From the NCBI GenBank assembly GCA_949294095.1, contig CASFFZ010000010.1, forward strand, positions 1 to 64,000: DNA of 64,000 nucleotides. The letters are read 5' to 3'. The notes under the pieces are model-generated. The model had not been told where the DNA came from. It was given only the letters and a program-made list of their open reading frames with translations, and did not search any database. The stretch is from an uncultured bacterium. GTDB taxonomy: Bacteria; Elusimicrobiota; Elusimicrobia; Elusimicrobiales; Elusimicrobiaceae. Both the position numbers and the translations under genes were made by a program. Positions 53,499 to 56,182 of this stretch are shown here, piece after piece (the first letter of the stretch is position 1; the number at the start of each line of letters is the position of its first letter).

Positions 53499-53964
53499 AA
53501 GATACTTTATTTTACCAATTTACAACCCTGCCACCTACTTTTTTGTGTGCCGCCTTTGGCAACAGCGTTTTGGGAAGGGGTTCCCCGCAGATCCCAAAAT
53601 GCAACAGGGGGAGGGTGAAATACCCTTAAACTTAAAATGAAGCGAGTTTACAAAGCCTTTTCCAAAATGCAAAATTAGCCTCGATTTTTAAATTTTGTCT
53701 TTTTGCAAAATCGCCTTTAATTTTGCTTTATTTATTTTCCGATTTTTTCCAAATCTTAATGGCCGGTTTTGCGGCGTTTTTTGGACAAGTCTTTGTTGTG
53801 TGGTTTTTGAACCATTTTTTATAACTTTAATTTTGGCCCGTTTTTTGTTTTTTGCGTTCCGGTTTTGCTGCAGTATTTGCGGCCTCGCTGCAACCAAAAT
53901 CTAACCGGAAGACATATATTAGATTTTTTCAAGTCTCCAAGGGATGATTTTCTAACAAACCCAC

Positions 53965-54080
53965 TGACATTTTTATGTTGTTTATCGTCGGAGAACGGCC
54001 CTTATCAACACAAAATGACATATAATGACATTAAATAGAAAAGTATTGACATATGTCAGCTAATAATCTATTATATGTCA
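53965..54080 (+). promoter_or_regulatory. Array of TGACAT/ATGTCA operator half-sites
   Basis: Half-sites start at 53965, 54016, 54026, 54047, 54053 (inverted) and 54075 (inverted). 54047-54058 is a perfect palindrome, TGACATATGTCA. Successive distances of 10, 21 and 22 bases between several sites are near whole helical turns. The palindrome covers the -35 box, so binding would repress. The likeliest binder is the product of the next gene. Confidence 0.65.
54046..54074 (+). promoter_or_regulatory. Near-consensus promoter overlapping the operator
   Basis: TTGACA (54046-54051), 17-base spacer, TATTAT (54069-54074); predicted start near 54081, leader of about 50 bases with AGGGG before the ATG. 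Confidence 0.7.
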
Positions 54081-54129
54081 TATACGGCGGACAACTCCGG
54101 TGGATAACTTTTTATACAGGGGAATTATT

Positions 54130-54813
54130 ATGGCGGAAGAATCTTTCAAAATACGTCTTCGCTTCCCGAGCGGCGAAGAGTTTGAAGCGCAAGGCAACCA
54201 GCAATTTGTAGAGCAGCAGCGTAATTATTTTTTAACGCTGATTGGCAAGCAAAAAGGGCGCACCTCTACCCTGTCAGCCGAGCCGGCCCTTTCCCGCACG
54301 CCGGCCTTTACGGAGGCGTCTGTTTCTCCCACTGCGCCGTCTCTTTCCCCGCTTTCCGATCCGGGCAAGCGCCTTCCGCCCCTCTCTATCCTTCCGCCCG
54401 CCGAAAGGGAAGCGGCCCCCGCAGAAAGCCCCACAGCACCTGCCGGGCTGGAATCTTCCGGCGCATTTCCCGCTTTACGGCTTTGGGAACGGCTTTTAAA
54501 AGAAGACGGGGAAATTGTCCTGCTGCGCAAAAAAATGCGCCTCAGCGCCCAAGAAGCGGCCTTCCTCTTGCTGGCCGGAGCGCGTGTACTGCTTAAAAAA
54601 CCCTCCTACACCGCCTTGGACTTGGCCAGATCCCTCAAACAATCAGGTTTTTCCGCCGGGAGATTAGACCGTTTGCTGGCACCGGAAATCCGCAGCGGGC
54701 ACTTGTCTTGCGAAGGATCCAAAAGGGGGAGAACCTATCGACTGAGCAACGAAGGCTTTGCCAAAGCCTTTGTTCTGGCAGAAAAATTAGGCCAAGACAA
54801 TAATCTGTTGTAA
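54130..54813 (+). CDS. Unknown protein with Pro-rich linker and probable winged-helix C-terminus
   Basis: 227 residues from ATG 54130. Residues 1-42 form a small domain (FKIRLRFPSGEEFEAQGNQQ, then FVEQQRNYFLTLIG). Residues about 50-115 are a Pro/Ser/Ala-rich linker. Residues about 130-222 look like a winged helix: helices around SAQEAAFLLLAGARVLL, then YTALDLARSLKQSG, a recognition-like helix AGRLDRLLAPEIRSGHL, and a wing KRGRTYRLSNEG. No family recognised. It is a single gene flanked by large non-coding stretches, with its promoter covered by palindromic operators, so an autoregulated DNA-binding protein is likely. A terminator is not obvious. Confidence 0.7.
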   Translation: MAEESFKIRLRFPSGEEFEAQGNQQFVEQQRNYFLTLIGKQKGRTSTLSAEPALSRTPAFTEASVSPTAPSLSPLSDPGKRLPPLSILPPAEREAAPAESPTAPAGLESSGAFPALRLWERLLKEDGEIVLLRKKMRLSAQEAAFLLLAGARVLLKKPSYTALDLARSLKQSGFSAGRLDRLLAPEIRSGHLSCEGSKRGRTYRLSNEGFAKAFVLAEKLGQDNNLL

Positions 54814-54832
54814 ATCCAGCCAACCCCTGGCC

Positions 54833-54889
54833 TTAGCCCTTAGCCCTTAGCCCTTAGCCCTTAGCCCTTAGCCCTTAGCCCTTAGCCTT
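54833..54889 (+). repeat. Tandem heptanucleotide array (TTAGCCC)n
   Basis: TTAG recurs at 54833, 54840, 54847, 54854, 54861, 54868, 54875 and 54882, exactly seven bases apart, then one six-base unit. A degenerate tail rich in CTAG continues to about 54938. Confidence 0.93.
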
Positions 54890-55154
54890 AGCCCTAGTCC
54901 CCTAGCGCCTGCCTAGCCCCTAGCTCTAGTCCTTAGAGCCCCGCGGCCATCCGGCCCTTTCTCCGCTGCTGTTCCGAAAACTACCCTATTAAACCGGCCT
55001 TGCAAGCAATGGGGGAAAACCTTCGCGGGGGAGCATATCCTTCCACCGCGTTACGTAAATAAGACGCTTTCCAGAAAAATATTGGAATTTTATTTAATAA
55101 GATAAAAAAAGAATATTTTTATCATATTTTTAAAAGTTATTAAAAAATAAGAAC

Positions 55155-55178
55155 TTTTATTTTTAAATAAAAATAAAA
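55155..55178. repeat. Perfect 10-base A/T inverted repeat
   Basis: TTTTATTTTT (55155-55164), AAAT, AAAAATAAAA (55169-55178), inside the AT-rich stretch. It could melt easily or form a weak hairpin; chance is possible in such composition. Confidence 0.5.
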
Positions 55179-56182
55179 AAATAAAGTTTCGTAAAACACC
55201 AAAACTCAATTTAAGTAAAGAAAAACCGCACTACCAACAGCTAACTAACGAAGACGGCATATAATTAGTACTCATTTTTGAAAAAGGGGGTTTTTTGGCT
55301 GGCTTACATAACTAATGATAATTTTTATTATGTTAATTAAAAGAGCAATAGAAAGCAAAAAACAATATCTATTATAACTATTAGTTTTATTTTGTTTTTT
55401 ATTAATTTAAAAGATTTTTTATATCTAAATTAATAAAATTTATAGTTTTTTATTTTCAGCAATTTCCGCTTGATGTGCTACGCTCAAAATTTTATCTTTT
55501 TTTGCTTGGATTCGCCTTGAATTTGCGCGACATAACAATAGTTCAGAAAAACAAAATTTAGATTATTTTTAGATTGATATTTATAAAATTAACTTCTTTT
55601 TTGATGTTTCAAACTTACATCTTTTTTGAAATTCAAAACAAAGCACTCCTCCCCCTCTTTTTTAAATAATTTAGTTGTAAAAATTTTTTTGCTTATTTTT
55701 TAATACAAATTTAAAATGAATGTAAAATTGCTAAAAATGCCCTAAAACGAATTGGGGGTACCTGGGATATGGGTTAAATCGAATTTGGGGCGATCTTAAT
55801 AAGCTCTTAAAAGAGGCCAAAACAAAAAATGGCCTTATCTTGGATTAAGGGTTTGTACACACAAGCCGGAAAACGCTTTCTGACCATATCCTTGGTAATA
55901 CAGGAGGAAGAAAGGGGGTGGTATCTTGTCCGCCGCGTGCAGGGTGGGAATGTGCCGAGAAGTTCCTGCAGGCGGCATGCTGGCCTACAGGCGTATAGGG
56001 GTGGGCGTTCATTTTAAAAGAAAGGAAGAAAGCCGAAAAGGAGCAGCCCCGTTTTCTTTTCCGGGGCATTACACGACAGAAGATATAACAATGGGGGAAG
56101 CTTACGTACAAACTTGGGCGTACGGCCACCAAAAGCGCCAAAGAAGCTCTGGCCTAAACCGGTACAAATAAAATGCGGTATG

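What the first reader, a model, noticed from the sequence alone, without database searches (positions are those of the whole stretch)
53965..54813. Promoter wrapped in TGACAT half-sites before an unrecognised winged-helix-like gene
Six half-sites lie within 116 bases, including a perfect palindrome TGACATATGTCA on the -35 box of a near-consensus promoter; several spacings are near 10, 21 and 22 bases. The gene behind it encodes an unfamiliar small domain, a Pro-rich linker and a winged-helix-like end. This looks like an autoregulated DNA-binding protein, with enough sites to nucleate a larger complex.
Basis: partly seen in the sequence, partly recalled or inferred. Interest (0 to 1): 0.68.

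Follow-up and report, generated by a model that had tools for sequence, protein, structure and literature searches.

The report
DnaA-linked autoregulated winged-helix gene
A bacterial phylum called Elusimicrobiota carries one copy of an undescribed DNA-binding protein whose gene is switched from a promoter packed with repeated recognition sites next to binding sites for the replication starter DnaA; the whole layout has been kept across the class, which points to a self-controlling, possibly cell-cycle-linked regulator.

Summary
Six TGACAT half-sites lie in 116 bp (53965-54080), five of them in a conserved core over a 17-bp-spaced promoter; 200 simulated windows never held more than two. The palindrome occurs once in the genome, even with one mismatch allowed. 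The array is confined to this gene: in 61 related genomes 33 of 36 tandem-site matches, and 24 of 24 matches to the promoter pattern, are at this promoter.

First, DnaA boxes flank the array (TTATCAACA 54002-54010; GTGGATAAC 54100-54108) and are conserved in a divergent family of the order (34/38 loci) and in deeper families (14/17), against almost none in control windows. Second, the protein is a single-copy, Elusimicrobiota-only family: a small beta-beta-alpha domain, a linker and a confidently modelled winged helix, matching no known family.

The locus is not oriC: GC skew does not switch there, and in a single-contig relative it lies 905 kb from dnaA. Best explanation: the protein binds the helically phased array cooperatively and represses its own promoter, with DnaA coupling expression to replication. 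Autoregulation and DnaA coupling are inferred, not shown. What the protein does besides is open.

The parts
54002..54010 (+). DnaA-box-like TTATCAACA just upstream of the array
   Evidence: Same position in relatives: f2 consensus GTTATCCACAGGTTATCAACA; TTATCAACA N2-7 TGACAT occurs once in the genome, here
54016..54021 (+). half-site 1 of the conserved core (TGACAT)
54026..54031 (+). half-site 2, 10 bp after the first
54047..54058 (.). half-sites 3 and 4: perfect palindrome TGACATATGTCA over the -35 box
   Evidence: unique in the genome at up to one mismatch; conserved in the genus
54046..54051 (+). -35 box TTGACA
   Evidence: sequence; nearly invariant in the f1 alignment
54069..54074 (+). 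-10 box TATTAT, 17-bp spacer
   Evidence: sequence; conserved in f1; TAGAAT/TATAAT at the same spacing in f2
54075..54080 (-). half-site 5 (ATGTCA) directly after the -10 box
54100..54108 (-). second DnaA-box-like sequence, GTGGATAAC (GTTATCCAC on the other strand), in the 5' leader
   Evidence: most columns at least 80% conserved in 29 same-genus loci
53965..53970 (+). outlying TGACAT, not conserved in relatives
54130..54813 (+). gene of the 227-aa DNA-binding protein
   Evidence: ORF; single-copy relatives in 53 of 61 near relatives and 117 of 248 genomes of the phylum
54145..54252 (+). N-terminal beta-beta-alpha domain (residues 6-41), suspected interaction or oligomerisation domain
   Evidence: AlphaFold2 pLDDT about 82-91; invariant G15, E17, E19, A20, G22, F34
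54253..54468 (+). variable, low-confidence linker (residues 42-113)
   Evidence: pLDDT 50-64
54469..54804 (+). winged-helix domain (residues 114-225); recognition helix about 54664-54696, wing about 54703-54744
   Evidence: pLDDT 94-98 over most of it; invariant R178, D180, R181, G196, R199

Best explanation
The locus is a self-contained control unit. The gene product, a winged-helix protein whose N-terminal domain probably dimerises or oligomerises it, binds the array of TGACATA repeats placed about one helical turn apart. Because the central palindrome covers the -35 box and a further half-site abuts the -10 box, filling the array shuts the gene's own promoter, so the protein sets its own level. 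DnaA bound at the flanking boxes activates or relieves this promoter and thereby ties expression to replication or the cell cycle. Shown: the sites, their clustering, confinement to this promoter, conservation and the modelled fold. Inferred: that this protein binds them, that binding represses, and that DnaA takes part.
For: Clustering far beyond chance. Palindrome unique in the genome. In 61 genomes, 33 of 36 tandem-site matches fall at this promoter (3 elsewhere, 3 in the reversed-pattern control); 24 of 24 matches to the palindrome/-10 pattern are here and none in same-genus genomes without the gene. All 29 same-genus and 38 f2-type upstream regions carry sites: 3.9 and 2.8 exact TGACAT per 230 bp against 0.03-0.08 in control windows. 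The f2 consensus keeps 11-11-10-bp phasing, the -35/-10 boxes and a site at about +1. DnaA boxes: 34/38 f2 loci against 0.004 per control window, 14/17 deeper loci against 0 of 378 control windows. The protein has a high-confidence winged helix with invariant residues in recognition helix and wing. A protein with one dedicated target array in front of its own gene is most simply its own regulator.
Against: No binding data. A promoter is lost along with its gene, so co-occurrence alone does not prove that this protein binds the sites. In f7/f8-type families the exact half-site is often replaced by variants, so the operator is not fixed. In the window's own genus exact DnaA boxes are found in only 13 of 29 upstream regions and the rest are degenerate. 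Repression rests only on the overlap with the core promoter; activation is possible.
Confidence: 0.62

Rival explanations
1. The array plus DnaA boxes is a chromosomal replication-control element in its own right, in the manner of crtS, datA or DARS, or an iteron-type secondary origin: DnaA and the winged-helix protein assemble there to modulate DnaA or initiation, and promoter control is secondary.
For: Layout closely resembles V. cholerae ori2 (head-to-tail iterons every 10-11 bp, a DnaA site, an initiator operator over its own promoter; PMC6090056). No other arrays in the genome. DnaA boxes are conserved over the class.
Against: GC skew does not switch at the locus; in G090 it is 905 kb from dnaA and about 95 kb past the skew switch. 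The protein is small and has one winged helix, unlike the multi-HTH initiators. There are few boxes per locus compared with the six or seven of the separate cluster at G000:C10:83.8-84.1 kb.
Confidence: 0.2
2. Another transcription factor, encoded elsewhere, binds the TGACATA array and regulates this gene; the protein itself acts on other DNA or on other molecules.
For: Nothing here shows which protein binds; the array is confined to this promoter whoever binds it.
Against: A separate factor with a single target kept over a class is less economical; no second promoter in 61 genomes carries the array.
Confidence: 0.12
3. A nucleoprotein or centromere-like nucleation site in the manner of AspA of pNOB8, a winged-helix protein that binds a palindrome before its own gene and spreads for over 200 bp (PMC5120986).
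For: AspA structures are among the fold matches (4rs8 TM 0.68-0.72 of the target); palindrome and single site per genome fit; no canonical parS within two mismatches in the genome.
Against: A chromosomal ParB gene lies about 7 kb from dnaA, no partition genes adjoin this locus, and many winged helices match as well as AspA.
Confidence: 0.06

Closest known systems
V. cholerae ori2 / RctB and iteron replicons (PMC6090056)
   Same: Head-to-tail repeats 10-11 bp apart, DnaA box beside them, an operator over the promoter of the adjacent binding-protein gene
   Different: Not at a replication origin by GC skew; small single winged-helix protein without sequence relation to any library family; one chromosome
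DnaA-controlled promoters, e.g. E. coli uvrB (PMC6015884, abstract only)
   Same: DnaA boxes in the promoter region together with sites of another regulator
   Different: Here the second set of sites is specific to this one gene, and the combination is conserved across a class
AspA, archaeal plasmid centromere-binding winged helix (PMC5120986)
   Same: Winged helix; palindrome in front of its own gene; possible spreading
   Different: No ParB/ParA partners adjoining; extra N-terminal domain and linker; phased direct repeats and DnaA boxes
PadR/LmrR, MarR, Sso10a and RTP winged-helix proteins
   Same: Fold of the C-terminal domain by model
   Different: No significant Foldseek E-value (none at 1e-3 or below in the PDB); no Pfam or NCBIfam family reached for the window protein

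Membership tests
Autoregulated transcription factor | Operator-like sites in its own promoter | tested here: met
   Sites overlap -35 and abut -10; array confined to this promoter
Autoregulated transcription factor | The product binds these sites and changes transcription | not testable with these tools
   Needs a gel shift or reporter
DnaA-regulated promoter | DnaA boxes in the promoter region, conserved | tested here: met
   34/38 f2 and 14/17 f7/f8 loci; weaker in the window's genus, 13/29 exact
DnaA-regulated promoter | DnaA binds and alters expression | not testable with these tools
   Needs DnaA footprinting and a reporter
Chromosomal replication origin (oriC) | GC-skew minimum and dnaA proximity | tested here: not met
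   No skew switch at the locus; 905 kb from dnaA in G090
Iteron replicon | Phased direct repeats with an adjacent DnaA box | tested here: met
   11-11-10-bp phasing after tandem DnaA boxes in the f2 consensus
Iteron replicon | Rep initiator protein or plasmid-borne relatives | tested here: not met
   No Pfam or PHROG initiator match, no plasmid, phage or viral-contig relative
AspA/ParB-type centromere system | Adjacent partition partners | tested here: not met
   Conserved neighbours are TPR and outer-membrane beta-barrel-type genes or mutY
PadR/MarR families | Profile match above cut-off | tested here: not met
   No match for the window protein; weak PadR hits in 3 of 80 relatives, best E 0.0019
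Winged-helix fold | H1-H2-H3-wing topology | tested here: met
   AlphaFold2, pLDDT 94-98 over residues 121-220

The most novel reading that the evidence does not exclude
A phylum-specific replication or cell-cycle control module: DnaA and a previously undescribed winged-helix protein assemble together on a unique chromosomal array far from oriC, so that the array is both the promoter switch and a sensor or titrator of DnaA or of its own replication, comparable in role but unrelated in parts to crtS, datA or DARS.
Probability: 0.25. Interest if true: 0.85.

Novelty: new variant of a known kind. Interest (0 to 1): 0.6.

Why it matters
My paper searches turned up nothing on cell-cycle control in Elusimicrobiota, and this single-copy family with a class-wide conserved, DnaA-linked promoter is a concrete handle on it. 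The promoter is so strongly conserved (about 90 bp readable as a consensus over 38 loci) that predicted operators, DnaA boxes and their spacing can be tested directly with purified proteins. If DnaA and the protein act together, it adds an independently evolved example of coupling gene expression, or replication timing, to DnaA.

Tried and rejected
oriC: rejected by GC skew in G000:C10 and G034:C1 and by position in G090; skew in the complete genome G259 was too weak to use. Terminus-specific site: the locus is about 95 kb from the skew switch in G090 and about 190 kb in G034, so no fixed place. Substitute helicase loader: Elusimicrobia are reported among the phyla that have dciA (PMC5109545), so none is missing. 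Mobile or plasmid origin: no relatives in plasmids, phages or viral contigs. Structured RNA: no Rfam match in 53500-55900. Second regulon member: no other array in 61 genomes beyond the chance level. Known family: Pfam, NCBIfam, PHROGs and PDB sequences gave none. The profile search of 12 gene-less genomes was empty but had no positive control within that call.

Full report
What is in the sequence. The two at 54047-54058 form the palindrome TGACATATGTCA, which overlaps the -35 box TTGACA (54046-54051); TATTAT follows after 17 bp, and the next half-site starts directly behind it. In 200 windows simulated with the same dinucleotide make-up no 116-bp stretch held more than two. The palindrome, with up to one mismatch, is found once in the 1.48-Mb genome.

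Conservation in the genus. Twenty-nine same-genus upstream regions align from about 54000 to the start codon. The repeats, the -35 and -10 boxes with their spacing and the half-site behind the -10 box are shared; the site at 53965 is not. Two further elements are shared: TTNTNNACA just before the array (TTATCAACA at 54002-54010 in the window) and GTGGATAAC in the leader (54100-54108). Both read as DnaA boxes, the first degenerate in many genomes: an exact TTATN[AC]ACA is present in only 13 of 29.

Conservation beyond the genus. Relatives of the protein are single-copy in 53 of 61 near relatives and in 117 of 248 genomes of the phylum. A scan of 84,980 species' genomes returned 80 loci, whose record titles name Elusimicrobiota or give no phylum. 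I call the two other groups of loci f2 and f7/f8 after the family labels; the assignment of the named records to them is by a sequence motif in the protein. In 38 f2-type loci the promoter can be written as one consensus: GTTATCCACAGGTTATCAACA NN TGTTGACATATG N CTGCCATATG N TTGCCATATATTGACATATAA (N) TTATANGCTAGAATAATGACATAT, with repeats 11, 11 and 10 bp apart, TTGACA-17-TAGAAT as core promoter and a last site at about +1. DnaA boxes TTATN[AC]ACA are present in 34 of 38, against 0.004 per control window of the same loci. In f7/f8-type loci TATC[AC]ACA stands in 14 of 17 upstream regions and in none of 378 control windows; exact TGACAT is rarer there (absent from 7 of 17), but related variants are enriched (3.9 per region against 0.08).

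Specificity. In 61 genomes, TGACAT N4-5 TGACAT matches 36 times, 33 of them at this promoter; the reversed control pattern matches 3 times. The palindrome-to--10 pattern matches 24 times, always here, and in none of the seven same-genus genomes where the gene was not found. That absence is weak evidence, since a promoter is lost with its gene and some of these genomes are incomplete. TTATCAACA N2-7 TGACAT is unique in the window's genome and falls here in 9 of 12 matches among the 61.

The protein. No Pfam match for the window protein at E up to 1, no NCBIfam or PHROG match at E up to 0.1, and no PDB sequence match for the profile. AlphaFold2 on an 80-row alignment gives a beta-beta-alpha domain (6-41), a low-confidence linker and a winged helix (114-225, pLDDT mostly 94-98); an f2-type relative gives the same plan. 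Foldseek finds many winged helices, none at E of 0.001 or below in the PDB: LmrR, F93, RTP, Sso10a, RosR, AspA; the viral library gave one unnamed match at 7e-4. Invariant residues lie in the recognition helix and wing (R178, D180, R181, G196, R199) and in the N-terminal domain (G15, E17, E19, A20, G22, F34). DNA binding is therefore likely; the role of the N-terminal domain is a guess.

Where it lies. GC skew keeps its sign across the locus in 221 kb of the window's contig and in 546 kb of a relative's, whose sign change is about 190 kb away. In G090, one contig of 1,643,562 bp with dnaA at its start, the gene is at 905 kb and the skew changes between 800 and 820 kb. It is not oriC. In the window's genome dnaA-dnaN-gyrB lie on another contig, with a ParB gene about 7 kb away. 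The neighbourhood is conserved in part: a TPR gene and outer-membrane beta-barrel-type genes upstream on the same strand, with mutY in between in the window's genus.

Mechanism. The simplest reading is an autoregulated DNA-binding protein: its only array in the genome covers its own core promoter. Phased repeats argue for cooperative binding on one face of the helix. DnaA boxes kept from the order to deeper families of the class argue that DnaA takes part. V. cholerae ori2 offers a near parallel in layout: iterons every 10-11 bp, a DnaA site and an operator over the initiator's promoter (PMC6090056). AspA offers one for a winged helix that nucleates on a palindrome before its gene (PMC5120986). 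Neither is a relation by descent that I could test. Binding, the direction of regulation and DnaA's part remain to be shown.

Limits. All evidence is comparative. Several loci fetched by two routes are the same genomes (for example L005 and L168), so the sets overlap and related genomes are not independent. Organism names come from record titles; G handles carry none. That G090 is Elusimicrobium minutum rests on its length and my memory, not on a test.

Noticed in passing
G000:C10:83791-84127 (outside the window); G034:C1:188228-188563: A cluster of six to seven DnaA boxes, nearly all perfect TTATCCACA, within about 330 bp, some 30 kb from the gene in both genomes and not at a skew switch; datA- or DARS-like by appearance.
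   Followed up: partly
53896-53929: AAAATCTAA ... TATATTAGATTTTTT inverted repeat, conserved in most same-genus loci upstream of the array.
   Followed up: no
53983-53995: TATCGTCGGAGAA, in relatives a near-palindrome TTCTCGTCGGAGAA, conserved between the inverted repeat and the DnaA box.
   Followed up: no
54831-54895: 9.4 copies of the heptamer CCTTAGC directly behind the gene.
   Followed up: no
55060-55750: Strikingly A+T-rich stretch without a listed ORF of 80 aa or more.
   Followed up: no
G000 (whole genome): No canonical parS (TGTTTCACGTGAAACA, up to two mismatches), although a ParB gene lies near dnaA; the parS of this lineage may differ, or lie in a gap.
   Followed up: partly
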